Source: an uncultured Anaerolineae bacterium (GTDB lineage Bacteria > Chloroflexota > Anaerolineae > CG2-30-64-16). Taken from it: a stretch of DNA of 36,674 nucleotides. Where the stretch lies: NCBI GenBank assembly GCA_937124585.1, contig CAKZKT010000011.1, positions 1 through 36,674 on the forward strand. Direction: 5' to 3'. Below, piece after piece: positions 6,419 through 25,564 of the stretch. The notes under the pieces are model-generated. The model saw only the letters and a list, made by a program, of their open reading frames with translations. It was not told where the DNA came from and ran no database searches. Each line of letters starts with the position of its first letter. The stretch's first letter is position 1. The position numbers were made by a program, and so were the translations under genes.

Positions 6419-6462
6419 AATGCAACAAACAGCACATAGTGCTTGACCGGGGGAACAACGTC

Positions 6463-9637: not shown

Positions 9638-9652
9638 AGGGGCGGTTCGATT

Positions 9653-9687
9653 CACGCGCCAGGTACCCTTCCAGGTGCCTGGCACGT
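9653..9687. repeat. GTGCCAGGCAC hairpin repeat, copy 5
   Basis: ACGCGCCAGGTACC pairs imperfectly with AGGTGCCTGGCACGT. It is the second member of a tandem pair in the 106-base hdrA1-mvhD1 gap. The stem ends 16 bases before the mvhD1 ATG, so it could affect translation of that gene. Confidence 0.82.
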
Positions 9688-9703
9688 AGGGGCGGCGAAT
9701 CTT

Positions 9704-11169: not shown

Positions 11170-11274
11170 GTTTTAGAAATCACTGGCTGTTGAACCGATT
11201 GAAAGAGTAATCAATGGTGACGTGATCCGTATCTCACGGCAGAGGTGCGTTCCAGTTGCATGGGAGGGGACAAC

Positions 11275-14200
11275 ATGCCCGGCAATGGTCGCGAGCCCAA
11301 CGAGCAGGTGGTCGGCGCGGTGATGGTCGTCGGCGGCGGCATCGCAGGGATGCAGGCCGCCCTCGATCTGGCCGAGTCCGGTTACAAGGTTTACCTGGTG
11401 GAGCAGAAATCGGCCATCGGCGGCCACATGGCGCAGCTCGACAAGACCTTCCCCACCAATGACTGCGCGATGTGTACCATCTCGCCCAAGCTGGTAGAGA
11501 CCGGCAGGCACCTTAACATCGAAATATTGACCAATACCGACGTGGCCGGCTTGCGGGGCACGGCGGGCAACTTCACCGTCACCGTGCGCACCCGGCCGCG
11601 CTACATTGACGTCCAGAAGTGCACCGGCTGCGGTGAGTGCGCCCAGGTCTGCCCGGTGGTGATCCCTTCCCACTTCGATGAAGGCCTCCGGCAACAGCGC
11701 GCGGCGCATAAGCTCTATCCGCAGGCGATCCCGAACGCCTACGCCATCGAGAAACGCGGCATCGCGCCGTGTCGCGATGCCTGTCCGGCACACCAGCGCG
11801 CACAGGGCTACATCGCGTTGATCCGCGAGGGCCGCTTCGAGGACGCGCTGCGGGTCATCAAGGAGGACAACCCCTTCCCCGGCATCTGCGGCCGCATCTG
11901 CAACCACCGCTGCGAGGATGCCTGCAACCGCGGCAAGGTGGACGACCCGGTCAACATCCACGCGCTCAAGCGGTTCGTCACCGATACGGTCTACGCCGGG
12001 CCGCGTGTGCCGGTCGAGCCGATCCCCAAACGCTACGAGGAGCGGGTGGCGATCATCGGCGCGGGGCCGTGCGGCCTGACCGCCGCGCAGGACCTGGCGA
12101 AGCTGGGCTATCCGGTCACGGTGTTCGAGGCGCTGCCGGTGGCGGGCGGCATGTTGCGGGTGGGCGTGCCCGAATACCGGCTGCCCTCCTGGATCGTGGA
12201 TCGCGAGGTGCAGGATATCCTGGACCTGGGCGTCGAGCTGCGGCTGAACACCGTCGTCAGCAACCTGGACGACATCTTCGCCGAGGGGTTCAAAGCGGTG
12301 TTGATCGCGGTCGGCGCGCACGAGGGGGTCCGGCTGCCGATCCCGGGCAACAACCTGGAGGGTGTGCTGATCAACACCCAGTTCCTGCGGGATGTGCGGC
12401 TGGCCGAGCTGAAGGACGAAGCGGCGAATCCGCGAAGCGGCGAATCAGCAAATCAGCGAATGGACGAAGCGGCGAATGGTGATCCCCGGTCCCAGATCCG
12501 GGGGAAGCGGGTGCTGGTGCTCGGCGGCGGGAATGTGGCCATTGATGTGGCGCGCACGGCCGTCCGCCTGGGCGCGGCCGAGGTGCATATGGCCTGCCTG
12601 GAGGGCCGCCAGAACATGCCCGCCCACCCGTGGGAGGTCCAGGCCGCGCTGGACGAGGGGATCGTTATCCACAACGACCGTACGTTCGTCCGCATTTTGG
12701 ATGACGGCAATAGCCGAGCTGCCGGAGTCGAGTGTCGCCGCGTGGCGCATTTCGAGTTCGACGACCAGGGCCGGCTCTCGGTGGAGACGGTGCCCGGCTC
12801 CGAGCATGTGCTGCCGGCCGACGTGGTGATCTTCTCCGTGGGCCAGCGGGCCGGCCTGGCGTTCATCCCGCCGGATGCCGGGGTGGGGCTCACCTCCAGG
12901 CGCACCATCGCCGTCAACCCGAACACCTTCGCGGCGACCCGGCCCGGCGTCTTCGCGGCGGGCGACAGCGTCAGCGGCACCGCGTTCGTGATCGAGGCGG
13001 TGGCCAGCGGCCACAAATGCGCCGAGTCCATCCACCGCTACCTGCGCGGGGAGGCGCTGGAGCCGAAGCCGAAGCCCGAGCTGCCGGTGGTCAAGCTGAC
13101 CCAGGCCGAGCTGAACGAGCGCATCCAGCGCGGGGAGGTGCATACCACCCCGCGCGTGCCCATGCCCGAGCTGCCGCCGGAACAGCGGGTCAAGGGCTTT
13201 GCGGAGGTGGAGACCGGCTACACGGCCGAGCTGGCCCAGGCCGAGGCCGCCCGCTGCCTGGCCTGCGGCGTCTGCTCCGAGTGCCTGAGCTGCTGGTACA
13301 AGTGTGGCGTTGGCGCCATTGACCACGACATGGTGGAGCAGACGCAGGAGATCAACGTCGGCGCGATCATCCTGGCCCCCGGCTACGAGGTCTACCGGGC
13401 CGAGCTGTCGGAGGAGTTCGGCTGGGGCCGCTATCCCAACGTGGTCACGGCCCTGCAGTTCGAGCGCCTGCTGAACGCCTCCGGGCCGACCATGGGGCAT
13501 GTGCAGCGGCCGTCCGACGGCCGCACGCCGAAGAAGATCGCTTTCCTGCAGTGCATCGGCTCGCGCGACCGGTCACACGACTACTGTTCGGCCGTCTGCT
13601 GCATGTACGCCACCAAGCAGGCGATCATGGCCATCGAGCACGAACGCGACACCGAAGTCCGCGTGTTCATGATGGATATGCGGGCCTTCAGCAAGGGCTA
13701 CGAGACGTACTACCGCCGGGCGATGAACCAGTACGGCATCCACTTCACCCGTTGTCGCATCTCGGCGATCAAGGAGAACCCGGCCAACGGCAATTTGATC
13801 GTGCGGTATGTAGACGAAGGGGCGAAGGGGCGAATTAGCGAATCAGCGAATCAGCGAATGGGCGAATCAGCGAAGGGGCGAATTAGCGAATCAGCGAAGC
13901 GGCGAAACGATTTGTCCATTTGCGAGGAAGAGTTCGATCTGGTCGTGCTGTCGGTCGGCATGGAGATCTCGGAGAGCGTGCGCGAGCTGGGGCGGCGGCT
14001 GGGGATCGAGCTGGACGATTATGGCTTCTGCCACACGGTGCAGTTCGACCCGCTGCAGACCAGCAAGGCCGGCATCTATGTGGTCGGCCCGTTCCGCGAG
14101 CCGAAGGACATCCCGGACACGGTGGTCGAGGCGAGCGGCGCAGCCGCGCGGGCAGCCGGTCTGTTGGCCCAGGCCCGGGGCACGTTGATCGCGCAGCCGA

Positions 14201-16095
14201 CCTATCCGCCAGAGTACGACGTCAGCGGTGAGGAGCCGCGCATCGGGGTCTTCGTCTGTCACTGCGGATCGAACATCGGCGGTTTCCTGGACGTGCCGGC
14301 CGTGGCCGAATACGCGGCAACGCTGCCCTACGTCGTTCACGCGGAGCACAACCTTTACACTTGCTCGCAGGATTCCATCCAACGGATCACCGAGCGCACG
14401 AAGGAGCTGGGGCTGAACCGGGTGGTGGTCGCCTCGTGCACCCCGCGCACCCACGAGCCGTTGTTCCAGGACAGCATCCGGCAGGCCGGCCTCAATCCAT
14501 ACCTGTTTGAGATGGCCAATATCCGCAATCAGTGTTCGTGGGTGCACTCGGACAACTGGGAGGCAGCCACCGAGAAGGCCAAAGATCTGGTGCGGATGGC
14601 CGTAAGCCGTGCGGCCCGTCTCAGCCCGCTGTACAAACAGGAGTTGCCCGTACAGCAAAGCGCGCTGGTCATCGGCGGCGGGTTGGCAGGCATGGCCGCA
14701 GCGCTCGCCCTGGCCGACCAGGGCTTTCCGGTGGACCTGGTGGAACGCAGCCATGAGTTGGGCGGCAATTTGCGGCATGTCCATTATATGCCGGATGACG
14801 TGAAGTCGGCGATGAGGGAGACGGGAACTGTTGCAGGTCTCTGCTCCTCGTTCTCCGACCCGCACGAGTACCTTAACAATCTCATCCGCCGCGTCGAGTC
14901 TAACCCGCTCATCGCCGTGCATTTGAACAGCGAAGTGGTAGAGAGCGGCGGGTTCGCAGGCAACTTCACCAGCACATTGCGGACCGCCTCCGGTCAACGG
15001 GTGAGCATCCGCCATGGTGTGACGATTGTGGCTACCGGCGGCCAGGAATATCGGGGCAAGGAATATCTCTATGGCCAGCACAAACGGGTGCTGACCGGGC
15101 AAGAGTTCGAGGCGTTGCTGAGCGAATCAGCAAATCAGCCGACACCTCCATTTGTGCCGGAGCGCGGCGCAGGTGTAAGCGTCGGCGGATCGGCGGATAA
15201 TCCGCAGCCCGCAATCCGCTATCCGCAATCGGTAGTTATGATCCTTTGCGTCGGGCCGGCCGACAAGTATTGCGGCCGGCTCTGCTGTACCACGGCCCTC
15301 AAGAACGCGCTCAAGCTCAAGGAGCTCAATCCGGTGGCCAGAGTGACGATTCTGTACAAGGACATCCGGACCTACGGCTTTAAGGAACGACTTTATACGC
15401 GGGCGCGCGAACTGGGCATCATCTTCCTGCGCTACGACGATGCACATCGGCTCCAGGTGACCGCAGATGGGGAAGCCGGCCGGACTTCAGAGGGTGCAGG
15501 GCTCAGCGTGCGGGCTTGGGAGCCGGCCTTGGGCGAGTGGGTCACGCTGCACCCCGACCTGCTGGTGTTGAGCACGCCGATGGTGCCGGCGCCAGGTGCG
15601 CGCGAGTTGGGCACGGTGCTGAAGGTGCCGGTGGACCTGAACGGCTGGTTCCTGGAGGCGCATCCCAAGCTGCGGCCGGTGGATTTTGCCTCTGACGGCA
15701 TCTACATGGCCGGCGCCGCCCATTATCCCAAGTTCATTGACGAGACCATCGCGCAGGCGCAGGCCGCTGCGGCCCGGGCGGCCACCATCCTGAGTCACAA
15801 GACGATGATGGTTGGGGGCGTGGTCGCTCAGGTGAAGCCGGAGTTGTGCGTGGGGTGTCTGACCTGTGTGCGGATCTGTCCGTATGACGTGCCGGCCATC
15901 AAGGCCACGCAGCGCGGCGTGGGAGGCATCGTCGGCGCGGCCTACATCAATCCGGCCGTGTGTCATGGCTGTGGTCTCTGCGCGGCCGAGTGCCCGGCGC
16001 GGGCCATTCAACTGATGCACTACACTAGCGACCAGGTCGAGATCAAGATCGAAGCGTTGTTCGGCCTGGAGAAGCTGGAGCGGGTCACGGTGTGA
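11275..16095 (+). CDS. HdrA2: giant HdrA with inserted GltD/NfnB-like NAD(P)H module
   Basis: This 1606-residue polypeptide has an N-terminal HdrA flavin half: GGGIAGM near 17-23, canonical PTNDCAMC near 60, and CTGCGECAQVCP at 116. An inserted glutamate-synthase small-subunit-like module occupies about 165-600, with CRDACPAHQRAQGY, GICGRICNHRCEDAC, FAD loop IIGAGPCGLTAA, VPEYRLP and NAD(P) loop VLGGGNVAIDVA. HdrA then resumes with a Cys-rich CLACGVCSECLSCWYKC at 661. A second HdrA-like half starts near 988 with CHCGSNIGG, has its FAD loop near 1130, and ends in two [4Fe-4S] motifs (about 1525 and 1563). The inserted module is expected to exchange electrons with NADH or NADPH. Start ATG 11275 follows GGGAGGGG. 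Four segments absent from HdrA1 lie at about residues 381-402, 847-878, 1175-1196 and 1283-1320. Confidence 0.88.
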   Translation: MPGNGREPNEQVVGAVMVVGGGIAGMQAALDLAESGYKVYLVEQKSAIGGHMAQLDKTFPTNDCAMCTISPKLVETGRHLNIEILTNTDVAGLRGTAGNFTVTVRTRPRYIDVQKCTGCGECAQVCPVVIPSHFDEGLRQQRAAHKLYPQAIPNAYAIEKRGIAPCRDACPAHQRAQGYIALIREGRFEDALRVIKEDNPFPGICGRICNHRCEDACNRGKVDDPVNIHALKRFVTDTVYAGPRVPVEPIPKRYEERVAIIGAGPCGLTAAQDLAKLGYPVTVFEALPVAGGMLRVGVPEYRLPSWIVDREVQDILDLGVELRLNTVVSNLDDIFAEGFKAVLIAVGAHEGVRLPIPGNNLEGVLINTQFLRDVRLAELKDEAANPRSGESANQRMDEAANGDPRSQIRGKRVLVLGGGNVAIDVARTAVRLGAAEVHMACLEGRQNMPAHPWEVQAALDEGIVIHNDRTFVRILDDGNSRAAGVECRRVAHFEFDDQGRLSVETVPGSEHVLPADVVIFSVGQRAGLAFIPPDAGVGLTSRRTIAVNPNTFAATRPGVFAAGDSVSGTAFVIEAVASGHKCAESIHRYLRGEALEPKPKPELPVVKLTQAELNERIQRGEVHTTPRVPMPELPPEQRVKGFAEVETGYTAELAQAEAARCLACGVCSECLSCWYKCGVGAIDHDMVEQTQEINVGAIILAPGYEVYRAELSEEFGWGRYPNVVTALQFERLLNASGPTMGHVQRPSDGRTPKKIAFLQCIGSRDRSHDYCSAVCCMYATKQAIMAIEHERDTEVRVFMMDMRAFSKGYETYYRRAMNQYGIHFTRCRISAIKENPANGNLIVRYVDEGAKGRISESANQRMGESAKGRISESAKRRNDLSICEEEFDLVVLSVGMEISESVRELGRRLGIELDDYGFCHTVQFDPLQTSKAGIYVVGPFREPKDIPDTVVEASGAAARAAGLLAQARGTLIAQPTYPPEYDVSGEEPRIGVFVCHCGSNIGGFLDVPAVAEYAATLPYVVHAEHNLYTCSQDSIQRITERTKELGLNRVVVASCTPRTHEPLFQDSIRQAGLNPYLFEMANIRNQCSWVHSDNWEAATEKAKDLVRMAVSRAARLSPLYKQELPVQQSALVIGGGLAGMAAALALADQGFPVDLVERSHELGGNLRHVHYMPDDVKSAMRETGTVAGLCSSFSDPHEYLNNLIRRVESNPLIAVHLNSEVVESGGFAGNFTSTLRTASGQRVSIRHGVTIVATGGQEYRGKEYLYGQHKRVLTGQEFEALLSESANQPTPPFVPERGAGVSVGGSADNPQPAIRYPQSVVMILCVGPADKYCGRLCCTTALKNALKLKELNPVARVTILYKDIRTYGFKERLYTRARELGIIFLRYDDAHRLQVTADGEAGRTSEGAGLSVRAWEPALGEWVTLHPDLLVLSTPMVPAPGARELGTVLKVPVDLNGWFLEAHPKLRPVDFASDGIYMAGAAHYPKFIDETIAQAQAAAARAATILSHKTMMVGGVVAQVKPELCVGCLTCVRICPYDVPAIKATQRGVGGIVGAAYINPAVCHGCGLCAAECPARAIQLMHYTSDQVEIKIEALFGLEKLERVTV
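12415..12478. repeat. 8-bp tandem repeat, 8 units, inside hdrA2 (insert 1)
   Basis: Eight consecutive octamers fit the pattern RRCGAAKN (for example GGCGAATC, GACGAAGC, one AGCAAATC). They lie in frame between the FAD and NAD(P) parts of the GltD-like module, just before GKRVLVLGGG. Reading an 8-base unit gives an 8-residue peptide period. The segment is rich in Ser, Ala, Asn and Glu and has no counterpart in GltD-family proteins. Confidence 0.88.
13813..13908. repeat. 8-bp tandem repeat, 12 units, inside hdrA2 (insert 2)
   Basis: Twelve consecutive octamers, mostly AGCGAATC, GGCGAATT, GGCGAAGG or AGCGAATG, run without a break in period. They encode a hydrophilic stretch with repeated SESAN/QRMGE/SAKGR units. 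HdrA1 has only a short loop (HYPGPDGKMVT) at the equivalent site, so about 28 residues were gained at a surface loop. Confidence 0.92.
14797..14859. repeat. In-frame insertion in hdrA2 (insert 4), probable repeat-derived
   Basis: About 20 codons (DVKSAMRETGTVAG and following) lie between GGNLRHVHYMPD and PHEYLNNLIRRV. The same position of HdrA1 joins directly (GGNLRHIFYVAEG to NPQRLL). A GAGAC...GTCTC inverted pair is visible inside. It is not an octamer tract, and its origin as a mobile repeat is inferred from the gap in the paralogue. Confidence 0.45.
15121..15233. repeat. In-frame repeat-derived insertion in hdrA2 (insert 3)
   Basis: The segment begins with two octamers of the same family (AGCGAATC, AGCAAATC), then a unique piece, then GGCGGATC/GGCGGATA, and ends with a 7-base motif (CCGCAAT, CCGCTAT, CCGCAAT). 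HdrA1 has only PEEITRLKQ at this site before VVMIQCV, so roughly 25 residues were added before the conserved VVMILCVGP. Confidence 0.75.
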
Positions 16096-16105: not shown

Positions 16106-16564
16106 ATGGGCGCAGGAAATAACACACAGCCTGCCGAGTGCGGCAAGGAATTCCAGCCGGAGATTGTCGCCTTCTGCTGTAATTTCTGTGCCTATGCCGC
16201 GGCCGACCTGGCCGGCGCGCTGCGCCTGAGCTATCCGCCTAACCTCAAAATCATCCTGTTGCCCTGCACAGGGCGATTGGATATGCTGGAGGTGATGCAC
16301 GCTTTTGAGCGCGGGGCCGACGGTGTGTTGGTGGCCGGTTGCCTGGAGGGAGAGTGCCACTTCCGCACCGGCAATCTCAACGCCCGGCGCCGCGTCGAGT
16401 ATGTCCAGAAGCTGCTGGAGCAGATCGGCCTGGGTGGCCGGCGGATTCAGATGGTGAACATGTCTTCGGCGATGGGCGCGCACTTCGCCATCGCCGCGGC
16501 TGAAATCACGGCCGAGGTGCAATCCATGGGCCCCAATCCGCTGAAGATGATGGTGTTATGCTGA
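16106..16564 (+). CDS. mvhD: MvhD2: [2Fe-2S] electron-transfer subunit of the HdrA2 unit
   Basis: The 152-residue second MvhD-family protein has cluster cysteines in VAFCCNFCAYAAAD, LLPCTGRLD and VAGCLEGECHFRTGN, and the ending SMGPNPLK. It starts 10 bases after the hdrA2 stop with a GAGGAG Shine-Dalgarno (16094-16099) overlapping that stop. Its C-terminal region has SSAMGAHFAIAAAE where MvhD1 has SGGMGETFARCAHE. The strict HdrA-then-MvhD order, repeated twice in the cluster, suggests that each HdrA has its own MvhD partner. Confidence 0.9.
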   Translation: MGAGNNTQPAECGKEFQPEIVAFCCNFCAYAAADLAGALRLSYPPNLKIILLPCTGRLDMLEVMHAFERGADGVLVAGCLEGECHFRTGNLNARRRVEYVQKLLEQIGLGGRRIQMVNMSSAMGAHFAIAAAEITAEVQSMGPNPLKMMVLC

Positions 16565-16570
16565 GTACGG

Positions 16571-16602
16571 TGTGTCGGGCATCTGCGAGAGTGCCTGGCA
16601 CA
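16571..16602. repeat. Degenerate GTGCCAGGCAC-family hairpin, copy 6
   Basis: Intact right arm GTGCCTGGCAC with a decayed left arm (GTGTCGGGCA) in the 65-base mvhD2-kinase gap. The arms still pair in part. It looks like an old, eroding copy. Confidence 0.6.
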
Positions 16603-16629: not shown

Positions 16630-17883
16630 ATGGACGAGCAGATCAGAAGGCAGGCTGAGGTGCATCCCATCGCCGGTGTGACGGCCGAGCGCATGGCCGA
16701 ACTGGCCGGCCCCCTCGGCTGGGGCGATGCTTGCCGGCTGCTGAAGCTGGACGAGGCCATCGCGGCTGTGCGCCAATTCGATCTCTTTGCAGGGCTGGAT
16801 GACGCCGAGCTGGCCGAAGTGGGCAAGCTGGCCTACGAGTGCTCATGGTCGCCGGGGGTGGAATTCATCCACCAAGGAGAAGAGGCGCGCAACTTCTGCT
16901 TGTTGGTGGAGGGACAGGTCGCCCTGGAGATGGAGGTTCGGCTGGGCCCTCACAGCCCGCCGCGGCGGGCTACGGTCGAATTCCTCAATCCCGGTCACGC
17001 ACTGGGGTGGTCCAGCCTGGTGCCTCCTTTTATTTACACTAAGAGCGCCATGGCCGTCCAGCGCACCCGCGCGCTCTGCCTTGACGGCCAGGCACTGCGC
17101 AACCTGATGCAGCGTTGCCCTCGCATCGGCATGCTCGTCATGGACAAGATCGCGGCGCTTATTGCCTCTCGCCTGGAACATCAGTCCAACATGTTGCTCT
17201 ACTTCTTGAGCATCATCTCTCATGAGCTGCGGGCGCCACTGGCGGCGGTAGAGAACTATCTGCAGGTGATCTTGAGCGGCTACACCGGTCCGCTGACCAC
17301 AGACCAACAAACGATGCTGGAACGCTCGGTGCTGCGCCTGGAAGAGACGTCGAGGCTGATCACGGGGATTTTGGACCTGGCCCGCATGCAGCCCGAGCAG
17401 ATCCGCCAGGCATTCGAGCCGGTTGACCTGCACGAGGTGATCACCGAAGCGGTCGAAGACGTGCAACTGGGGTTGAAACAGAAAGAGCTGGCTTTGACCC
17501 TCGATGTGCCGCAGCAGTTGCCCCCGATCATCGCGGCGCACGGCCGGCTGCGCCAGGTGCTCACCAACCTGCTGAGCAACGCCATTAAGTTCTCGCCCGC
17601 CGGGAGCCAGGTGTGGCTCGTGGTTCGACCATGCGAGAATAAACTGCGCATAGAGGTGACTGACCAGGGCATGGGCATCCCGCGCGACGAGCTCGACCGT
17701 ATCTTTGAAGCCTTCTATCGCACGCGCGGCGCGGCCGGTACGGCCGGGCTCGGGCTGGGCCTTTCGATTGTCAAACGCATCGTGGACGCGCATCAGGGTC
17801 GCATCTGGGCTGAAAGCCCCTATCCGTCCGAAGGCAGGGGGGGCAGTCGTTTTGTGGTAGAACTTCCTCTCAATCCACAATGA
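16630..17883 (+). CDS. Sensor histidine kinase with N-terminal cyclic-nucleotide-binding-like domain
   Basis: The 417-residue soluble protein has no membrane segment. Residues about 48-165 form a Crp/cNMP-binding-type beta roll (FAGLDDAELAEVGKL, GVEFIHQGEEARNFCLLVEGQV). The HisKA helix carries the phospho-acceptor His198 in SHELRAP. The ATPase domain has an N box (LTNLLSNAIKFS), G1 box (DQGMGIP), F box and G2 box (GTAGLGLGLSIVKRI). Lying between MvhD2 and the double-receiver and MetV genes, it probably reports a cytoplasmic signal relevant to the methyl branch, such as redox state or a small ligand. The signal itself cannot be read. The receiver protein starts 56 bases later. Confidence 0.9.
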   Translation: MDEQIRRQAEVHPIAGVTAERMAELAGPLGWGDACRLLKLDEAIAAVRQFDLFAGLDDAELAEVGKLAYECSWSPGVEFIHQGEEARNFCLLVEGQVALEMEVRLGPHSPPRRATVEFLNPGHALGWSSLVPPFIYTKSAMAVQRTRALCLDGQALRNLMQRCPRIGMLVMDKIAALIASRLEHQSNMLLYFLSIISHELRAPLAAVENYLQVILSGYTGPLTTDQQTMLERSVLRLEETSRLITGILDLARMQPEQIRQAFEPVDLHEVITEAVEDVQLGLKQKELALTLDVPQQLPPIIAAHGRLRQVLTNLLSNAIKFSPAGSQVWLVVRPCENKLRIEVTDQGMGIPRDELDRIFEAFYRTRGAAGTAGLGLGLSIVKRIVDAHQGRIWAESPYPSEGRGGSRFVVELPLNPQ

Positions 17884-17939
17884 CACGGTGGCGCCGGGCC
17901 CTGTGCAAGCGCCCGGCGTCTGTAGAACAGGAGGATGCG

Positions 17940-18761
17940 ATGGCGCAAGGAGCGAAGATCTTATTGGTGGATGACGATCCCGATATCCACATCTCGCTTG
18001 GCACGGTGCTGCGGGCCGAGGGTTATCATGTCACGTCGGCGCGCGACGGCGTGGAGGCGATGAAGTTCATTTACAAGGACCGGCCTGATCTGGTGATTCT
18101 CGACTTGCTGATGCCGCGCAAAGACGGCTTTGCGGTCGTGCGTGAGATCCGAGAAGACCCGGAGTATGCCGACTTGCCCATCTTGATCCTGACAGCCGTG
18201 CGGGAAGAGGCCAGCCGACGGCGTTATGAATTGGAAACCGGTTCCGACATGGATGTGCAGGATTACATCGAGAAGCGCATCCGGCCGGCCGAGCTCCTGC
18301 GCCGCGTGCGCAAGCTGCTGCCACAGCCTGCGCCGGAAGCTGCGGCCCCGGCACCGGTTGCCCCCAAGGCAAAGGTGCTGTTGATAGATGACGATCCGGA
18401 TTTCGTGGCCGGCACGCGCGTCACCCTGGAGGCCAACGGCTATCGGGCATTGACCGCCTTGAGCGGCGCCGAAGGCTTGGCCCTGGCGCGCAGCGAAAAG
18501 CCCGACCTGATCCTGCTCGATATCATCATGCCGCACCAGGACGGCTTCATGGTGTGTGAAACCTTGAAAGCCGATGCTGAGCTGGCGAAGATCCCGGTCA
18601 TCATGTTGACTAGTTTCTCCGAGCGCCTGCGCGACACCTCGTACGCGGCGCTCCAGGGGATGATGCTGGAGGCCGAGGACTACCTCGACAAGCCTGTGCG
18701 GCCGCCGGAGCTGATCCGACGGATCGAGGCCGCCTTGAAAGCCAAAGGAGGTGGCCCATGA
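17940..18761 (+). CDS. Double-receiver response regulator without output domain
   Basis: The 273-residue protein holds two CheY-like receivers joined by a Pro/Ala linker (residues about 128-144). Receiver 1 has acidic DDD at 11-13, phospho-Asp55 (LVILDLLMP) and Lys112. Receiver 2 has DDD near 150-152, phospho-Asp194 (LILLDIIMP) and the DYLDKP lysine. No DNA-binding or enzyme domain follows, so it would act by phosphotransfer or protein binding. The start is ATG 17940 with GGAGG nearby (17930-17934). Its stop overlaps the metV1 start (ATGA), so it is translationally coupled to a methylene-H4folate reductase subunit, which is unusual for a regulator. Confidence 0.9.
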   Translation: MAQGAKILLVDDDPDIHISLGTVLRAEGYHVTSARDGVEAMKFIYKDRPDLVILDLLMPRKDGFAVVREIREDPEYADLPILILTAVREEASRRRYELETGSDMDVQDYIEKRIRPAELLRRVRKLLPQPAPEAAAPAPVAPKAKVLLIDDDPDFVAGTRVTLEANGYRALTALSGAEGLALARSEKPDLILLDIIMPHQDGFMVCETLKADAELAKIPVIMLTSFSERLRDTSYAALQGMMLEAEDYLDKPVRPPELIRRIEAALKAKGGGP

Positions 18762-19417
18762 TCATCACCGAGCAGAAACCGCTTGCCGATGTGTTGAACA
18801 TGCTCACCGGCCACCGATCGGTCTTCGTGATCGGTTGCGGTGTGTGTGCCGCCACCTGGCGGACGGGTGGTGAGCCGGAGGTGCAGACGCTGGCCGGCCA
18901 GTTGCGCGCCGCCGGCAAGCAGTGCAGCGGTTGGGTCGTCACCCAAGAGGCCTGCTGTGATGCGCGCCTCACCCGCCGCGTGCTCAGGCAATCGGAAGTC
19001 GCGCTGAGCGTCAGCGATGCCATCGTTGTCATGGCCTGCGGCGCCGGCGCGCAGACGGTGGCTGCGCTGGTCGAGCTGCCGGTCTATCCTGGCCTCAACA
19101 CCCTGGCGCTCGCGCAGGTCCAGAGCCTGAATCTGGCGTTTGAACGTTGCCGTCTGTGCGGCGACTGCATCCTGGCCGAAACCGGCGGCATCTGCCCGGT
19201 GGCGCGTTGCCCCAAGGGGCTGATGAACGGCCCCTGTGGCGGCTACCAGGACGGCAAATGCGAGGTGGACCGCACGCAGGATTGCGCCTGGGTGGCGATC
19301 TACGACCGCTTGCAGCAGTTGCAGCAGGCTGAACGCTTCGCGGCCATCCGTGAGCCGAAAGACTGGAGCCGGATGCGCAGCCCGCGCGTGATAGACAAAA
19401 AGGCTGCCGGAGGCTAA
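18758..19417 (+). CDS. metV: MetV1: Fe-S/zinc partner subunit of methylene-H4folate reductase
   Basis: The 219-residue MTHFR C-terminal (MetV) family protein has an N-terminal domain with VFVIGCGVCAAT, then the Cys-rich signature: CRLCGDCILAETGGICPVARCP, MNGPCGGYQDGKCEV and a late CAW. In Moorella and other acetogens MetV forms a complex with MetF and connects it to the electron source. The gene overlaps the receiver-protein stop by four bases (ATGA) and precedes metF1 by two bases, so the three genes are tightly coupled. Confidence 0.9.
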   Translation: MIITEQKPLADVLNMLTGHRSVFVIGCGVCAATWRTGGEPEVQTLAGQLRAAGKQCSGWVVTQEACCDARLTRRVLRQSEVALSVSDAIVVMACGAGAQTVAALVELPVYPGLNTLALAQVQSLNLAFERCRLCGDCILAETGGICPVARCPKGLMNGPCGGYQDGKCEVDRTQDCAWVAIYDRLQQLQQAERFAAIREPKDWSRMRSPRVIDKKAAGG

Positions 19418-19419
19418 CC

Positions 19420-20355
19420 ATGGAAGCGATCAGCCGCCTGGAACAGACGCTGCAGGCCGGCCGGTTCGCGATCACCGTGGAGATCGGCCCGCCCAAAGGG
19501 GTGGATGTGGGCCACCTGCTGGCGGCGGCCGAACGCCTGCGCAGCTACGTTCACGCCGTCAACGTCACCGACCAGCAGAGCTCGGTGATGATGTTGGGGT
19601 CGTTGACTGCCTGCCATCTCCTGGTGGAGCGCGGCATCGAGCCGATCTATCAGGTGACCTGCCGGGACCGCAACCGCATCGCATTGCAGTCGGACCTGTT
19701 GAGCGCCTACGCGCTGGGGATCCGCAACGTGCTTTGCCTGACCGGCGATCATGTCTCTCTGGGCGATCACCCCCACGCCAAACCGGTGTTCGACCTGGAC
19801 TCGGTGACATTGCTGCGCACCTTGCGCACCCTGGAGGACGGGCATGATCTGGTCGGCAAACCGCTGGTCGGCGCGCCGCGCTTCTTCCCGGGCGCCGTGG
19901 TCAGCCCGGCCGCCGTCCCGTTGGGGCCGCAGCTCGCCAAGATGGAGAAGAAGGTGCAGGCCGGCGCGCGTTTCTTCCAGACCCAGGCGGTCTACGATCC
20001 GGCGGTGTTCGAGCGGTTCATGCGCCGGATAGAATATCTCGGCGTGCCCGTCCTGGTCGGCATCATTCCGCTCAAATCGGCCGGTATGGCGCGCTTCATG
20101 AACCGCAATGTGGCCGGGGTGCAGGTGCCCGAATCGCTCATCGAAGAGATGACGGTGACAAGCGATCGGGTGAAAACCGGCGTGGCGATCGCGGCCCGCT
20201 TGATCCGCGCCATGATGCCCATGTGCCAGGGCGTGCACCTGATGCCGATCGGGTGGGAACAGCACGTGCCGGCCATCCTGGAAGCGGCGCTGCCTGAGCG
20301 TGATGTGGAGCCTTGCAGCGATCGAGCCGCAATCGAAGCCCAGGCTCCAACGTGA
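19420..20355 (+). CDS. metF: MetF1: methylenetetrahydrofolate reductase, divergent paralogue
   Basis: The 311-residue TIM-barrel flavoprotein reduces 5,10-methylene-H4folate to 5-methyl-H4folate. The catalytic-Glu strand is seen as VEIGPPKG near 24-31, folate/flavin segments as TCRDRNR and CLTGDH, and substrate-side segments as FFQTQAVYD. It departs from MetF2 and MetF3 at several places: VTDQQSSVMMLGS instead of TDNQ...RM.S, and FPGAVVSPAA instead of FIGA.ANPF. It also lacks their conserved ending GVAGIHIMA, having GVHLMPIGWEQ. The pairing with MetV1 is intact. The differences suggest altered partner or substrate use. Confidence 0.9.
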   Translation: MEAISRLEQTLQAGRFAITVEIGPPKGVDVGHLLAAAERLRSYVHAVNVTDQQSSVMMLGSLTACHLLVERGIEPIYQVTCRDRNRIALQSDLLSAYALGIRNVLCLTGDHVSLGDHPHAKPVFDLDSVTLLRTLRTLEDGHDLVGKPLVGAPRFFPGAVVSPAAVPLGPQLAKMEKKVQAGARFFQTQAVYDPAVFERFMRRIEYLGVPVLVGIIPLKSAGMARFMNRNVAGVQVPESLIEEMTVTSDRVKTGVAIAARLIRAMMPMCQGVHLMPIGWEQHVPAILEAALPERDVEPCSDRAAIEAQAPT

Positions 20356-20396: not shown

Positions 20397-21074
20397 ATGA
20401 TCGTTGCTGAACAGAAGCCGCTGGCCGAGATCAAGGAGATGCTCCAGGGCTATGACCGGGTGCTCGTCGTGGGCTGCGGCACCTGCGTCACCGTCTGCCT
20501 GGCGGGCGGCGAGAAGGAGGTGGGCATCCTGGCCTCGGCGCTGCGCATGGCCACGAAACTGGACGGCCATGGGATCGCCATGGACGAAGTGACCGTCCAG
20601 CGCCAGTGCGAGTGGGAGTACATTGATCCGCTGCGCGAGCGGCTGGCCAACTACGATGCCATCCTGTCGCTGGGCTGCGGGGTCGGCGTGCAGACGCTGG
20701 CCGAACGCTTCCCAGACAAACGGGTGCTCCCCGGCCTGAACACCAGGTTCATGGGCCTGCCCACCGAGCAGGGCGTCTGGGAGGAGCGCTGCCAGGCCTG
20801 CGGCGACTGCATTTTGGATTTGACCGGCGGCATCTGCCCGATCGCGCGCTGCTCCAAGCAGCTGCTCAACGGGCCGTGTGGTGGCTCGCAGCGCGGTAAG
20901 TGCGAGGTGAACTCGGAGACCCCGTGTGCCTGGCAGCTGATCTGGGAGCGGATGACCGCGCTGGGCATGCTCGACCGGCTGCTGCAGATCCAGCCGCCCA
21001 AGGATTGGCGCACCAGCCGCGATGGCGGCCCGCGGCGGATCATCCGCGAGGATTTGCGGTTGCCGGAGGACTGA
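20397..21074 (+). CDS. metV: MetV2: Fe-S/zinc partner subunit of methylene-H4folate reductase
   Basis: The 225-residue paralogue of MetV1 has the same start (MI.AEQKPLAEI) and VLVVGCGTCVTVCLAGGEKEV. Its Cys-rich C-terminal signature is CQACGDCILDLTGGICPIARC, LNGPCGGSQRGKCEV, CAW. The N-terminal domain carries one more Cys (TCVTVC) than MetV1. The start ATG 20397 follows GGGAGG at 20384-20389 and the gene precedes metF2 by 13 bases. It probably feeds electrons from the Hdr module to MetF2. Confidence 0.9.
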   Translation: MIVAEQKPLAEIKEMLQGYDRVLVVGCGTCVTVCLAGGEKEVGILASALRMATKLDGHGIAMDEVTVQRQCEWEYIDPLRERLANYDAILSLGCGVGVQTLAERFPDKRVLPGLNTRFMGLPTEQGVWEERCQACGDCILDLTGGICPIARCSKQLLNGPCGGSQRGKCEVNSETPCAWQLIWERMTALGMLDRLLQIQPPKDWRTSRDGGPRRIIREDLRLPED

Positions 21075-21087: not shown

Positions 21088-22074
21088 ATGACCAACGTCT
21101 CAACCAACGGTTATAAGGTCGGCAGCAACCTGGAACGCGTCTTGACCAAAGGGTACTTCGCGGTGACCGGCGAGCTGGGGCCGCCCAAGAGCCACGACGC
21201 CGAGGTGATCCGCAAGAAGGCCGCGCTGCTCAAGGGGGTGGTGGATGCGGTCAATCTCACCGACAACCAGACGGCCATCGTGCGCATGAGTAGCATCGCG
21301 GCCGGCGTGTTGGTGCTGCGCGAGGGGCTAGAGCCGATCATCCAGATGACCTGCCGCGATCGCAACCGCCTGGCCATGCAGGCCGACCTGTTGGGCGCGT
21401 CTGCCCTGGGTATCAAGAATCTGCTCTGTCTTACCGGCGACCACCAGTCGTTCGGCAACCATCCTTTCGCCAAGAATGTGCACGACGTGGACTCGATCCA
21501 GCTCATCCAGATCGTGCGGGCTCTGCGCGACGAGGGCAAGTTCCAGTGCGGCGAGGAGATCAAGGGCGGCGGCCCGCGCTTCTTCATCGGCGCCGCGGCC
21601 AACCCGTTCGGCGATCCCTTCGAGTTCCGCCCCTACCGCCTGGCGAAGAAGGTCGCGGCCGGCGCGGACTTCATCCAGACCCAGCTCATCTACGATATCC
21701 CGCGCTTTCGGGAGTTCATGAAACGGGTCGTTGACCTGGGCCTGCACGAGAAGGTGAAGATCCTGGCCGGCGTCGGCCCACTCAAGAGCAGCGGCGCAGC
21801 CAGGTACATGCGCGATCAGGTGCCCGGCATGATCGTCGCGGACGAATACGTGGAGCGCATGGAAGCGGCCGTAGCCAACATCCCCAAAGAGGACAAAAAG
21901 GCCCGCGCGGCCGCCTGGCGCGAGGCCGGCATCAAGATCTGCATCGAACAGATCCAGGAGATCCGGGAGATCCCCGGCGTGGCCGGCATCCACATCATGG
22001 CCATCGAGTGGGAAGAGGCGGTCAAGCCAATCGTCGAGGGCGCCGGCCTTCTGCCGCGGCCGGTGGTAGATTGA
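21088..22074 (+). CDS. metF: MetF2: methylenetetrahydrofolate reductase
   Basis: The 328-residue MetF-family barrel has TGELGPPKS (catalytic Glu), NLTDNQTAIVRMSS, TCRDRNR, CLTGDH, FFIGAAANPFGDPFEF, IQTQLIYD and an ending GVAGIHIMAIEWEEA. I chose ATG 21088, preceded by GAGGAGGG at 21073-21080. It is closest to MetF3 in motif content, and both share the C-terminal IHIMA segment absent from MetF1. It probably catalyses the main methylene- to methyl-H4folate step feeding AcsE. The N terminus has about 14 extra residues (TNVSTNGYKVGSN). Confidence 0.92.
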   Translation: MTNVSTNGYKVGSNLERVLTKGYFAVTGELGPPKSHDAEVIRKKAALLKGVVDAVNLTDNQTAIVRMSSIAAGVLVLREGLEPIIQMTCRDRNRLAMQADLLGASALGIKNLLCLTGDHQSFGNHPFAKNVHDVDSIQLIQIVRALRDEGKFQCGEEIKGGGPRFFIGAAANPFGDPFEFRPYRLAKKVAAGADFIQTQLIYDIPRFREFMKRVVDLGLHEKVKILAGVGPLKSSGAARYMRDQVPGMIVADEYVERMEAAVANIPKEDKKARAAAWREAGIKICIEQIQEIREIPGVAGIHIMAIEWEEAVKPIVEGAGLLPRPVVD

Positions 22075-22165: not shown

Positions 22166-22198
22166 CGGTCGTGGCCTCTTGATGAAGTGAGGTACGCA

Positions 22199-23623
22199 AT
22201 GCCGACAACCAAAACTACCATTCCCGCAGCTCAGGGGACGGCCGAACCTCTCGCCGAAGCGATCCAGCGCCTGGTGGGCGAAAACGCCTACCTGTGTTAC
22301 CAGTGCTTGAAGTGCACCAGCGGCTGTCCGCTGGCCGAGCGCTTCGACCTGACCCCCAACCAGGTGATGCGCTGCGTGCAGCTGGGGGACGCGTCGGTGC
22401 TGGAGAGCCGCGCCATCTGGCTGTGCGCGTCGTGCGAGACGTGCACCACCCGCTGCCCGCAGGGCATTGACATCGCCGCGGTCATGGACGCGCTGCGCAT
22501 CGAGGCCCGGCGCCGCGGCATCCCGCCCGCCATCCCCGAGGTGGACCGCTTCGCGCGGCTCTTCCTGGCCGACGTGAAGCTGATGGGCCGGTTGCACGAA
22601 GTGGGGCTGATGGCCGGGCTGAACCTGCTCAACCGCAACCTGTTCAAAGACATGGACATGGCGGTCGAGATGCTCAAGCGGGGCAAGCTGCACCTGGTTT
22701 CGCTGCCCACGCGGCCGCCCAAGCCCGGCGCGGTCAAGCCGGTGACGCCCGCCGAGAACCAGATCGCCTACTACCCCGGCTGTTCGCTGCATTCCTCGGC
22801 CAGCGAATACCATCATACCATCGAGGCCGTCGCCGAGAAGCTCGGCCTGGAGCTGGTGGAGCCGCCCGGGTGGATCTGTTGCGGCTCCAGCCCGGCGCAC
22901 TCGACCGATCGCGTCCTGGCGACGCAGTACCCGGTCATCAACCTCTCGATCATCGAGCAGATGGGCTTCGACGAGGTGACCACGCCCTGCGCGGCCTGCT
23001 ACAGCCGATTCAAGACCGCGGCCCATGAGATGGCCCACAACGGCGAGATGGCCCGCCAGGTCAACCAGGCGATCGGCTACGAGTATCAGGGCAAGGTGCG
23101 CATCATGCACCTGGTCGAGGCGCTCATCGAGAAGGCCGGGCTGGATCGCATCGAGCAGGCGGTGGAGAAGCCGCTCAAGGGGCTGAAGGTGGCCTGCTAC
23201 TACGGCTGCTACATCACCCGGCCGGCCGAGATCACCGGCGCCGAGCATCCCGAGTATCCCATGGACATGGACTACCTCATGCGCCGGCTGGGCGCCGAAC
23301 CGGTGGCGTGGGACTACAAGACCGACTGCTGCGGCGGCTCCTTGGGCTTGACCCAGACCCCCATCGCGCATGAGATGACCGCGAAGGTGCTGCGCAATGC
23401 CAAAGCCCGCGGCGCGGATGCCGTGGTCACCGTGTGCCCGCTGTGCCACGTCAACCTGGACGGCCGGCAGGCGCAGATCAAAGACCTGGGCTTCGCCATG
23501 CCGGTGCTATATGCCACGCAGCTTGCTGCCCTGGCCTTCGGCCTGCCGGTGAAGGCGGCGCTGCTGGAGAAGAACCTGGTGGATCCCCGGCCGCTGTTGC
23601 GGGAGAAGGGGCTGGTGGATTAG
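22199..23623 (+). CDS. HdrCB: fused heterodisulfide reductase subunits C and B
   Basis: The 474-residue fusion has an HdrC part with two [4Fe-4S] motifs (CYQCLKCTSGCP near 32 and CASCETCTTRCP near 79). The HdrB part has two complete CCG domains: Cys-x31-CCG-x34-CAAC, and Cys-x39-CCG-x33-CPLC. These five-Cys sets hold the noncubane [4Fe-4S] clusters that reduce disulfides in methanogens. In acetogens the true substrate of HdrB within MetFV-Hdr complexes is unsettled. It is the only HdrB/HdrC gene in the window, so it must serve both HdrA proteins if it serves them at all. ATG 22199 is chosen for the AAGTGAGG at 22185-22192; a GTG at 22187 is also in frame. Confidence 0.9.
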   Translation: MPTTKTTIPAAQGTAEPLAEAIQRLVGENAYLCYQCLKCTSGCPLAERFDLTPNQVMRCVQLGDASVLESRAIWLCASCETCTTRCPQGIDIAAVMDALRIEARRRGIPPAIPEVDRFARLFLADVKLMGRLHEVGLMAGLNLLNRNLFKDMDMAVEMLKRGKLHLVSLPTRPPKPGAVKPVTPAENQIAYYPGCSLHSSASEYHHTIEAVAEKLGLELVEPPGWICCGSSPAHSTDRVLATQYPVINLSIIEQMGFDEVTTPCAACYSRFKTAAHEMAHNGEMARQVNQAIGYEYQGKVRIMHLVEALIEKAGLDRIEQAVEKPLKGLKVACYYGCYITRPAEITGAEHPEYPMDMDYLMRRLGAEPVAWDYKTDCCGGSLGLTQTPIAHEMTAKVLRNAKARGADAVVTVCPLCHVNLDGRQAQIKDLGFAMPVLYATQLAALAFGLPVKAALLEKNLVDPRPLLREKGLVD

Positions 23624-24262: not shown

Positions 24263-24730
24263 ATGAACCTTCGACGTGCCATCCAGGATCATCCCCACTG
24301 CCTTGAGCGCCTCTGGCAGGCCATGGAGTGGGCGTTGCACCGGCTGAACCCGTTCTTCGCCCGCATCGGCTATGACCGCGCGGCGAAGATCATCCTCCCC
24401 TTCGAGGATGTGGGCAAGAAGCTGGTTTTCGACTGTCGGCTGTGCGGACAGTGCATCCTGCACTACACCGGCATGACCTGTCCCATGACCTGTCCCAAGA
24501 ACCTGCGCAACGGCCCGTGCGGCGGCGTGCGCCTGAACGGCCACTGCGAGGTCAAGCCGGAGATGCGTTGCGTTTGGTTGGACGCGTACGAGCGCAGCCA
24601 GAAGATGCCCATTTGGGGCCGGGAGCTGCTCACCGAACAGCCGCCGGTCAACTGGCAGCTCCATGGCACGTCGTCCTGGATCAACCTGCTGAAGGGCGTG
24701 GACCGGCGGCTGCGGGTGGTGAGCAAGTAG
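24263..24730 (+). CDS. MetV3: short MetV-type Fe-S/zinc protein
   Basis: This 155-residue protein keeps only the MetV Cys-rich domain: CRLCGQCILHYTGMTCPMTCP, RNGPCGGVRLNGHCEV and CVW. In place of the N-terminal domain of MetV1 and MetV2 it has a helical segment (LERLWQAMEWALHRLNPFFARIGYDRAA). The CPMTCP spacing differs slightly from CPVARCP. It starts three bases after the toxin stop without a strong ribosome site. It probably partners MetF3, which lies two genes downstream. Some stand-alone proteins of this family have unknown roles, so subunit status is inferred from context. Confidence 0.82.
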   Translation: MNLRRAIQDHPHCLERLWQAMEWALHRLNPFFARIGYDRAAKIILPFEDVGKKLVFDCRLCGQCILHYTGMTCPMTCPKNLRNGPCGGVRLNGHCEVKPEMRCVWLDAYERSQKMPIWGRELLTEQPPVNWQLHGTSSWINLLKGVDRRLRVVSK

Positions 24731-24738: not shown

Positions 24739-24774
24739 CACGTGCCAGGCACTTCTGAAAGTGCCTGGCACGTG
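24739..24774. repeat. GTGCCAGGCAC hairpin repeat, copy 7
   Basis: Perfect 16-base arms CACGTGCCAGGCACTT and AAGTGCCTGGCACGTG with a CTGA loop: the best-preserved hairpin of the family in the window. It fills the metV3-GNAT gap. Confidence 0.92.
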
Positions 24775-24792: not shown

Positions 24793-25563
24793 ATGAGCGA
24801 TCCGGTTGTCGTGAAGCGGGTGGAGAGCGCGGCCGAAGCCCAGCAGGCCTTCTGTTGCATGGCCGAGGTGCCCACCCCGTGGCCGGCCGCGCTGAACGTC
24901 TGTCGCGCCTGGGTGGGCCAGAACCTGGGCCGCTATGTCGAGGGCTATCACGTCCACGATGCCGACGGCGTCGTCGTCGGCCAGCTCTACTACGCGGCCT
25001 CGGAGCGCGCCCTCATCCCCTACGAGATCGAGCCGGGGGTCGCCGTGCTTTATTGCGAGTGGATACAGCGTCGCCGCCAGGGCCAGGGGTTGAGCCGTCA
25101 GCTCTTTGGGGCTTTCGAGGCCGAGGCGCGGGCGCAGGGCTGCAAAGGCATCCTGGTGGAGGCCACCACCCACGAAGACCAGATGCACTACCGCCACTAT
25201 CTGGTCCGTGGCTTCGAGGTCGTGCACGAGGCCGGCGATCGCAAGCTGCTCTACCGGCCGCTGAGCCGGCCGCGCGTGGACATCCGGCCGCTGGAGATGC
25301 GCATCCGGCCCCGCCGTGGCCTGCCGGTGGAGATCCTGATCCTGGCCGGCTACCTGTGCCCGTTCGAGACCGCGACGCAGATGCTCTTGCTGGATGTGGC
25401 GCGCGAGTTCGGAGAGCGGGTCGTCGTCCGCCATGAGGCGTTGAGCCCGGAGACGCTGCAGCGCTACGGCGTGGCCTATGGCGTGTTCATCAACGGTCGT
25501 CCGAAGCTGGGCGGCGCCACCACCGAAGAGGCGATCCGCCAGGCCATCTTGGAGGAATTCTGA
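24793..25563 (+). CDS. GNAT acetyltransferase fused to a thioredoxin-like (YoaP-type) domain
   Basis: The 256-residue protein has an N-terminal GNAT domain with the acetyl-CoA loop seen as RRRQGQGLSRQLF (about 97-109) and the strand GILVEATTHEDQMHYRHYLVRGFEVVHE. A C-terminal domain (about 175-256) follows with VEILILAGYLCPFETATQMLLLDVAREFGERVVVRHEAL and VFINGRPKLGGAT, a thioredoxin-like fold with one cysteine (CPF) rather than CxxC. This resembles the GNAT-YoaP architecture. A GAGGAGGGG (24781-24789) fixes ATG 24793. metF3 starts right after its stop using a ribosome site inside this gene. The acceptor substrate is unknown. Confidence 0.8.
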   Translation: MSDPVVVKRVESAAEAQQAFCCMAEVPTPWPAALNVCRAWVGQNLGRYVEGYHVHDADGVVVGQLYYAASERALIPYEIEPGVAVLYCEWIQRRRQGQGLSRQLFGAFEAEARAQGCKGILVEATTHEDQMHYRHYLVRGFEVVHEAGDRKLLYRPLSRPRVDIRPLEMRIRPRRGLPVEILILAGYLCPFETATQMLLLDVAREFGERVVVRHEALSPETLQRYGVAYGVFINGRPKLGGATTEEAIRQAILEEF

Positions 25564-25564
25564 T

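What the first reader, a model, noticed from the sequence alone, without database searches (positions are those of the whole stretch)
18758..20355. MetV1-MetF1 pair is the outlier of the three reductase sets
MetF1 differs from MetF2/MetF3 at blocks those two share (TDNQ...RM.S, FIGA.ANPF, GVAGIHIMA). MetF2 and MetF3 therefore look like a recent pair and MetF1 like an older or specialised paralogue, perhaps using another pterin, partner or direction.
Basis: partly seen in the sequence, partly recalled or inferred. Interest (0 to 1): 0.5.

Follow-up and report, generated by a model that had tools for sequence, protein, structure and literature searches.

The report
Ancient second type of folate reductase
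One gene cluster of a carbon-fixing Chloroflexota-like bacterium holds three versions of the same folate-reducing enzyme from different old branches of its family; the odd one out looks like a complete enzyme, probably fed by a different electron source, and sits next to a pair of signalling genes.

Summary
In detail: MetF1 differs from MetF2/MetF3 in the three named blocks (41% and 43% identity; MetF2-MetF3 57%). MetF1 is an old separate lineage, not a decayed copy. In trees of MetFs from several phyla it falls in clade A, with rnfC2-linked and plain metVF genes of unnamed Clostridia-class genomes; MetF2 and MetF3 fall in clade B. MetF2 belongs to an Hdr/MvhD-linked (type IV-like) group; MetF3 is a sublineage whose MetV lacks the N-terminal cysteines. 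One expansion, and MetF2+MetF3 as sisters, are both rejected (AU test). Key catalytic residues are present in all three, so another pterin is unsupported. A different electron partner is the likeliest meaning: MetV1 is of a type rarely beside HdrA, and no RnfC2 was detected. Against this, MetV1F1 shares its gene row with HdrA/MvhD. Two metVF lineages plus two-component genes were already reported in the Chloroflexi single cell DscP3 (2017). Added here: the third lineage, a MetV cysteine-spacing marker, and a kinase-receiver-MetF cassette recurring in Chloroflexota, Armatimonadota and, with another kinase, Desulfobacteraceae. By MetV and context, MetV3-MetF3 is the odder set.

The parts
16630..17883 (+). 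histidine kinase with N-terminal cNMP-binding domain
   Evidence: Pfam cNMP_binding, HisKA, HATPase_c; similar kinases near MetF1/MetF2b genes in other loci (Pfam of three such)
17880..18761 (+). double receiver protein REC1-REC2, no other Pfam domain found; its stop overlaps the MetV1 start
   Evidence: Pfam Response_reg, 2 stretches; each half groups with one of two separate receiver genes near MetF in other loci (SH-aLRT 92 each)
18758..19417 (+). MetV1, MetF partner; type VA cysteine spacing in the N-domain (C27, C30, C94 invariant in a 27-row alignment)
   Evidence: PF12225; MetV alignment, tree and Cys columns; AlphaFold model mean pLDDT 82.8
19420..20355 (+). MetF1, methylenetetrahydrofolate reductase of clade A, key catalytic residues present
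   Evidence: PF02219 138.6 bits; residues; trees; model pLDDT 89.2, fold match to Thermus MTHFR Z 29.6
20397..21074 (+). MetV2, Hdr-type (VB) MetV
   Evidence: PF12225; MetV tree and Cys spacing
21088..22074 (+). MetF2, clade B, Hdr-associated (type IV-like) MTHFR
   Evidence: PF02219; trees; context of relatives
22187..23623 (+). HdrC-HdrB fusion
   Evidence: Pfam CCG and Fer4; NCBIfam HdrB/HdrC models, below curated cut-offs
24263..24730 (+). MetV3, short MetV with only the 8-Cys C-terminal domain (start codon inferred from the ORF)
   Evidence: PF12225; N-domain cysteines absent in 15 of 15 MetVs of B3 loci
25478..26506 (+). MetF3, clade B sublineage B3 (exact start uncertain; overlaps the preceding ORF)
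   Evidence: PF02219 133 bits; trees
6439..9597 (+). HdrA1
   Evidence: Pfam Pyr_redox_2, Fer4; name by recall and context
9704..10141 (+). MvhD1
   Evidence: Pfam FlpD
11245..16095 (+). HdrA2 with an inserted Fer4_20 + Pyr_redox_2 (NfnB/GltD-like) module
   Evidence: Pfam; name by recall and context
16106..16564 (+). MvhD2
   Evidence: Pfam FlpD
4386..5297 (+). AcsE-like methyltetrahydrofolate methyltransferase
   Evidence: NCBIfam CODH_ACS_meth and PRK07535, below curated cut-offs
5415..6299 (+). FolD
   Evidence: NCBIfam PRK14188 above cut-off

Best explanation
MetV1-MetF1 is a complete methylene-tetrahydrofolate reductase of an old lineage separate from MetF2/MetF3. [quoted passage not shown] MetF1 would do the usual flavin-dependent reduction of methylene-H4F to methyl-H4F (residues shown, activity inferred). 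MetV1 would bring electrons from a soluble low-potential donor, most likely ferredoxin as in type II enzymes (inferred), whereas MetV2-MetF2 would work through HdrA-MvhD-HdrCB (inferred from gene linkage). The neighbouring kinase and double receiver would tune the choice, perhaps by protein contact since no DNA-binding domain was found in the receiver (inferred, weakest step). MetV3-MetF3 is a third lineage with a truncated MetV, found in relatives without HdrA nearby and in part near AcsE/FolD genes.
For: Deep split of MetF1 from MetF2/MetF3 with strong support. Clade-B loci of the same class (L183-L186) have HdrA, MvhD and HdrCB. Catalytic residues present. All 45 VB rows, MetV2 among them, have the third N-domain cysteine at one alignment column, and all 29 VA rows, MetV1 among them, at another. 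HdrA within 7 kb on the same strand: VB 30 of 32; VA rows with an N-domain 1 of 13, the one being L197. With types set by a spacing script and longer loci: VB 32 of 34, VA 0 of 18, or 1 of 19 with L197, which the script failed to type. No RnfC2 detected: the query matched the three window MetVs and three weak partial places. AcsB/CdhC and FTHFS present. Published parallel: DscP3 has a Moorella-like MetF_1 and an A. woodii-like MetF_2, with 'phoBR' flanking metF_1 (PMC5736913, passages).
Against: MetV1F1 lies in the same gene row as HdrA2 (2.7 kb upstream) and HdrCB; the window's own pair was not in the context counts for lack of flank in its locus. In L017, L021 and L031 HdrA is also in the row, about 7.4 kb upstream, just outside the 7 kb limit. 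So co-use of the Hdr complex is not excluded. The MetV type/HdrA link rests on few independent events: 4 supported pairs, same direction in 1.7 on average, not significant. Ten A-clade MetFs pair with VB-type MetVs, all ten with HdrA, and four pair with short MetVs, two of these with HdrA, so MetF lineage by itself does not decide the partner. The kinase-receiver link is not special to MetF1: 6 of 6 B2b rows have it, only 11 of 38 clade-A rows do, in part from the same loci, and L090 has it with a MetF2b and shows no MetF1. No biochemical data; no named A. woodii, Moorella or DscP3 sequence was compared here.
Confidence: 0.5

Rival explanations
1. MetV1F1 and MetV2F2 are two catalytic modules of one Hdr-MvhD megacomplex, or interchangeable subunits that plug into the same HdrABC-MvhD core.
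For: Same gene row with two HdrA and two MvhD genes. MetF1-type and MetF2b-type genes sit in one locus with a kinase and two receivers in L009, L015, L017, L019, L021, L023, L029, L031 and L097, and with one receiver in L098. In L023 and L029 no MetV gene lies directly before MetF1. Ten MetF1-type MetFs pair with Hdr-type MetVs. S. ovata MetVF and Hdr/MvhD-like proteins interact in pull-downs (PMC9430772, passages).
Against: MetV1 is of the type rarely beside HdrA; the eight clade-A metVF loci L182 and L187-L193 of the Oscillospiraceae class show no Hdr gene within 6 kb.
Confidence: 0.27
2. Directional split: one MetVF runs the Wood-Ljungdahl methyl branch reductively, the other oxidatively (acetate or methyl-group oxidation), switched by the two-component pair.
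For: Both lineages occur in two Desulfobacteraceae MAGs (L026; L027 with L129 of the same genome G208), a group known for complete acetate oxidation (recalled); kinase-receiver genes recur beside the MetF genes.
Against: Nothing in the sequence tells direction; purified A. woodii (type III) and S. ovata MetVF enzymes run both ways in vitro (PMC8760232; PMC9430772).
Confidence: 0.1
3. Specialisation for another pterin (for example H4MPT) or another C1 carrier.
For: Residue changes at positions aligned with E. coli 152, 168 and 224 (S, K, N in MetF1; N, R, R/A in MetF2/MetF3) set MetF1 apart.
Against: Glu28, Asp120 and Gln183 equivalents are present, the residues reported to protonate or bind methylene-H4F in E. 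coli MTHFR (PMC11094777, passages); the genome has FTHFS and FolD. The fold scores do not separate pterins.
Confidence: 0.03
4. Redundant, perhaps horizontally acquired copy without a distinct role.
For: MetF1-type is patchy in the class: at least 63% identity in 13 of 298 genomes searched (own included), 52-54% in 4 more; same-family genome G112 has HdrA1-MvhD1-HdrA2-MvhD2-MetV2-MetF2-HdrCB without kinase, receiver, MetV1 and MetF1 (L066).
Against: Catalytic residues present; kinase-receiver-MetF cassettes recur in several phyla.
Confidence: 0.1

Closest known systems
DscP3 double metVF in hdrABC-mvhD-metVF cluster (Sewell, Kaster and Spormann 2017, PMC5736913; passages seen; author names recalled)
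   Same: Chloroflexi grouped with Anaerolineae; two divergent metVF sets, one Moorella-like and one A. woodii-like; HdrC-HdrB fusion; two-component genes beside a metF
   Different: The window has a third metVF set (short MetV3), a fused REC1-REC2 protein, and kinase-receiver before MetV1F1 rather than flanking the Moorella-like metF
Type IV MTHFR (Moorella thermoacetica, Sporomusa ovata: HdrCBA-MvhD-MetVF; PMC8760232 sections, PMC9430772 passages)
   Same: MetV2F2 lies with HdrA, MvhD and HdrCB genes
   Different: two HdrA and two MvhD; an extra MetVF of another lineage in the same row
Type II MTHFR (MetVF alone; Clostridium ljungdahlii, PMC8760232)
   Same: MetV1F1 is a MetV-MetF pair of the clade that holds Hdr-free loci of the Oscillospiraceae class; no RnfC2 detected
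   Different: co-encoded with Hdr genes and a two-component pair
Type III MTHFR (Acetobacterium woodii, RnfC2-MetV-MetF; PMC8760232)
   Different: no RnfC2 detected in this genome

Membership tests
MTHFR family (PF02219) | match above Pfam cut-off over the whole domain | tested here: met
   MetF1 138.6 bits over profile 1-285 of 287, cut-off 24
MTHFR family (PF02219) | catalytic Glu28, Asp120, Gln183 (E. coli numbering) | tested here: met
   E, D, Q in MetF1, MetF2 and MetF3; roles from PMC11094777 passages
MetV-dependent MTHFR (MetVF) | MetV gene next to metF | tested here: met
   MetV1 PF12225 121 bits, ending 2 nt before the MetF1 ATG
Type II MTHFR | MetVF without RnfC2 or HdrCBA-MvhD partner genes | tested here: inconclusive
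   no RnfC2 detected, but Hdr/MvhD genes lie in the same row
Type II MTHFR | reduces methylene-H4F with ferredoxin, not NAD(P)H | not testable with these tools
   needs enzyme assay
Type III MTHFR | rnfC2 next to metVF | tested here: not met
   own-genome search with the RnfC2-like protein of L191 matched the three window MetVs and three weak partial places of 85-99 residues on other contigs
Type IV MTHFR (for MetV2F2) | hdrA, mvhD and hdrCB genes with metVF | tested here: met
   HdrA 11, MvhD 12, HdrCB 12 of 16 B2a rows with room
Type IV MTHFR (for MetV1F1) | physical complex with Hdr/MvhD | not testable with these tools
   shared gene row only
DscP3-like double metVF arrangement | one Moorella-like and one A. 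woodii-like MetF with two-component genes | tested here: inconclusive
   two clades and kinase-receiver genes found, but no named A. woodii, Moorella or DscP3 sequence was compared here

The most novel reading that the evidence does not exclude
The MetV subunit, not MetF, sets the electron source of an MTHFR (readable from the spacing of its third N-domain cysteine), and a kinase plus two free receivers form a conserved protein-level switch between a ferredoxin-fed and an Hdr-fed reductase in one operon: a gear change between fast and energy-saving carbon fixation.
Probability: 0.12. Interest if true: 0.65.

Novelty: new member of a known kind. Interest (0 to 1): 0.36.

Why it matters
How MetVF-type reductases get their electrons is an open question of acetogen energetics (PMC8760232, PMC13040438). 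A bacterium that keeps two or three types side by side, with signalling genes recurring beside them in several phyla, is a natural system to ask what each type is for. The MetV cysteine spacing is a simple sequence marker that could help sort metagenomic MTHFRs by likely partner, if it holds up on independent lineages.

Tried and rejected
Lineage-specific expansion of the three copies: rejected. MetF2/MetF3 as a recent pair: rejected. Degenerate MetF1: not supported, key residues present. RnfC2 partner: not detected. A solved relative of MetV by sequence: a search with MetV2 gave four poor hits (E 0.16-0.33) to kinases only. The MetV1 model gave only generic Rossmann-like matches (best Z 10.8, about 100 residues; periplasmic binding proteins, Dph2, dehydrogenases), so no functional reading was taken. 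Independent-pair test of MetV type against HdrA linkage: too few events to be significant. Receiver tree: the REC1 and REC2 groups have SH-aLRT 92 each, below the star, and receivers near MetF are not all one clade (5 changes of the near/far label). PHROGs, PADLOC and Rfam were not searched.

A correction made on re-checking: the class I first called VA held four short MetVs (L011, L012, L098, L100) that lack the N-domain cysteines and group with the MetV3 lineage (SH-aLRT 99); so one search's 3 of 17 for VA is 1 of 13 for true VA rows (L197) and 2 of 4 for those four. The spacing script put L197 among rows without a cluster, as its last cysteine is not followed by glycine (inferred from its letters). 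In one search rows typed as without a cluster had HdrA in 3 of 5 (clade A), 1 of 1 (B2a) and 0 of 12 (B3), and one clade-A row was left untyped. The Fisher p of 1e-7 belongs to the uncorrected 30 of 32 against 3 of 17 and ignores relatedness.

Rows dropped: 213 MetF ORFs cut to 146 non-redundant, plus 5 outgroup rows, two of them proteins already in the set, = 151. The careful tree used 80 hand-picked of these 151, without the E. coli-type outgroups and without 9 of the 11 rows flagged long. In the 151-row quick tree clade A has SH-aLRT 83, the Methanolobus row falls outside A and B, and the outgroup rows are not one side of a branch. MetV rows with under 8 kb of flank were left out of the context counts (12 of 44 VB, 15 of 32 others with a clade-A MetF, 3 of 15 of B3). 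The window's own MetV1 and MetV2 each appear twice among the MetV rows. Context counts used 38 of 62 (A), 16 of 21 (B2a), 6 of 13 (B2b), 15 of 23 (B3) and 10 of 12 (other B) rows. One search listed only part of its matches, so the MetF sample from the class is not complete.
Full report
What is there. The window is a Wood-Ljungdahl methyl-branch cluster on contig C11 of genome G000 (4.83 Mb, completeness 99.8%). The closest named relatives of MetF1 are Chloroflexota/Anaerolineae MAGs. On the + strand lie a RACo-like gene, a CooC-like ATPase (named by context and recall), an AcsE-like methyltransferase, FolD, HdrA1, MvhD1, HdrA2 with a GltD/NfnB-like insert, MvhD2, a cNMP-domain histidine kinase, a double receiver, MetV1, MetF1, MetV2, MetF2, an HdrC-HdrB fusion, a YefM-type antitoxin gene, MetV3, a GNAT protein, MetF3 and a CBS protein. 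The genome has a fourth MTHFR domain in a 655-aa open frame on C77, one AcsB/CdhC and one formyltetrahydrofolate synthetase, so a working Wood-Ljungdahl pathway is likely. The receiver stop overlaps the MetV1 start (18758-18761), and MetF1 starts 2 nt after MetV1.

The observation. Over 299 shared columns MetF2 and MetF3 share 60 residues that MetF1 lacks, against 23 and 20 for the other two pairings. Identities are 41, 43 and 57%.

Phylogeny. MTHFR domains were collected from 48 named loci, from a search of 199 genomes of the class, from 20 genomes behind named loci and from loci of the class of an Oscillospiraceae MAG, with regions fetched: 213 ORFs, 146 non-redundant. A quick tree of 151 rows and a careful tree of 80 chosen rows agree on the main split. 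In the careful tree clade A (33 rows, 99/93) holds MetF1 with MetFs of Chloroflexota, Armatimonadota, Symbiobacterium, Omnitrophota, Bipolaricaulota, Desulfobacteraceae and the Oscillospiraceae class; clade B (41 rows, 100/93) holds MetF2 and MetF3. In the quick tree clade A has only SH-aLRT 83. MetF1's nearest rows are L008 (74% identity) and L009. MetF3's nearest row outside its own group is at path 1.07. Path lengths are 2.34 (F1-F2), 2.92 (F1-F3) and 1.14 (F2-F3); depths from the A/B split are 1.45, 0.90 and 1.47. Holding all three window copies together is rejected (p-AU 1.8e-38) and so is MetF2+MetF3 as sisters (8.7e-120). So MetF1 is an ancient separate lineage, and MetF2/MetF3 are no recent pair. 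The MTHFR domains of nine long frames (620-738 aa), the genome's own C77 copy among them, branch outside A and B in the quick tree; six of them served as outgroup in the careful one. By size and recall they are bifunctional homocysteine methyltransferase/MTHFRs, which was not tested on them.

Active site. Mapped on E. coli MetF, the equivalents of Glu28, Thr59, Asp120, Lys172 and Gln183 are present in all three; Phe223 is Met in all three. The roles of Glu28, Asp120, Gln183 and Phe223 are from PMC11094777 (passages); those of Thr59 and Lys172 are recalled. The MetF1 model (pLDDT 89.2) matches Thermus MTHFR (Z 29.6, 276 residues, 2.9 A) and E. coli MTHFR (Z 27.8); flavin-independent and Sphingobium H4F reductases score 19-21 and H4MPT-type Mer 17-18, so the fold does not decide the pterin. 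Nothing found supports another pterin.

Partner subunits. MetV has an N-domain with four cysteines and a C-domain with eight. MetV3 and 15 of 15 MetVs of B3 loci lack the N-domain cysteines. In the others the third N-domain cysteine lies at one of two places: one in 45 of 45 VB rows (with MetV2), the other in 29 of 29 VA rows (with MetV1); four short MetVs beside MetF1-type genes lack the cluster and group with the MetV3 lineage. HdrA within 7 kb on the same strand occurs in 30 of 32 VB rows, 1 of 13 VA rows, 2 of those 4 short ones, and 0 of 12 B3 rows. With a spacing script and longer loci it is 32 of 34 VB and 0 of 18 VA, or 1 of 19 with L197, which the script missed. Ten clade-A MetFs pair with VB-type MetVs and all ten have HdrA nearby, so MetV type follows HdrA better than MetF type does. 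PMC6085437 (passages) reports two lineages of putatively bifurcating MetF interspersed with others, which fits. Caveats: only 4 supported independent pairs, not significant; and in tandem loci, the window included, MetV1F1 shares the gene row with Hdr genes even where HdrA lies outside 7 kb.

Signalling genes. In L009, L015, L017, L019, L021, L031 and L097 a kinase, MetF2b, two receivers, MetV1 and MetF1 follow in that order. L023 and L029 have MetV2-MetF2b-receiver-receiver-MetF1-kinase, and L026 (Desulfobacteraceae) MetV2-MetF2b-receiver-receiver-kinase-HdrA-MetV2-MetF1. L098 and L100 show one receiver. Four receivers (L017, L009) were scanned: each has a receiver domain and nothing else above cut-off. 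Four kinases were scanned: cNMP-HisKA-HATPase in L017, L009 and L023, receiver-PAS-HisKA-HATPase in L026. The window's two receiver halves group with the two separate receivers (SH-aLRT 92 each, below the star). Kinase and receiver within 6 kb, either strand: 11 of 38 clade-A rows, 6 of 6 B2b, 1 of 16 B2a, 1 of 10 other B, 2 of 15 B3 (none of the B3 on the MetF strand); tandem loci count in both A and B2b. The link is therefore at least as close for MetF2b as for MetF1.

What is known. PMC8760232 (abstract, first part of the Introduction and one results section seen) defines types I-IV. PMC5736913 (passages) already describes in DscP3 two metVF sets, one Moorella-like and one A. woodii-like, with phoBR flanking metF_1. 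The window is therefore a further member of that arrangement. The searches with kinase or two-component terms (open-licence PMC only; listings and abstract openings seen) showed no other paper plainly about such a link; no search was made for the MetV cysteine marker beyond.

Verdict. MetF1 is an old, apparently intact, A-clade MTHFR; the best reading is a different electron partner (0.5), the main rival a second module on the same Hdr complex (0.27). Interest is moderate, because the core arrangement is in print; the MetV marker, the third lineage and the recurring cassette are the additions.

Noticed in passing
window 12414-12477 and 13822-13906 (inside HdrA2 11245-16095): Octanucleotide arrays (GCGAATCA-like, 8-nt unit) inside the hdrA2 reading frame; six aligned relatives' HdrA2 proteins lack a comparable stretch at the first place, five of six at the second. 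An 8-nt unit in coding DNA would shift the frame if its copy number changed by one, so hdrA2 might be phase-variable.
   Followed up: partly
window 1-33, 45-77, 9606-9638, 9656-9688, 24742-24774; degenerate at 16572-16601: Intergenic palindrome GTGCCAGGCA-N(6-14)-TGCCTGGCAC with 285 exact-arm places in the genome and 0 for the reversed control. A degenerate copy lies between MvhD2 and the kinase, the left edge of the kinase-receiver-MetV1-MetF1 block that relative L066 lacks.
   Followed up: partly
L017:2978-5468: NiFe hydrogenase small and large subunit genes between MetV2 and the kinase, in a row with HdrA, MvhD, both MetFs and HdrCB.
   Followed up: partly
L168, L176, L179-L181: Open frames of 506-541 aa, in genomes of the Oscillospiraceae class, that hold both a MetF domain and a DUF5981 (MetV C-terminal) domain, apparently MetF-MetV fusions.
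   Followed up: no
L011, L012, L098, L100: MetF1-type genes paired with short MetVs (171-214 aa frames) that lack the N-domain cysteines and group with the MetV3 lineage in the MetV tree (SH-aLRT 99): MetV partners seem to have been exchanged.
   Followed up: partly
L052 (Halomonas sp. 25-S5): Short MetV, MetF of the MetF3-like lineage, an AcsE-like gene and a RACo-like gene in a row in a genus known as aerobic (recalled): maybe a corrinoid demethylation pathway.
   Followed up: no
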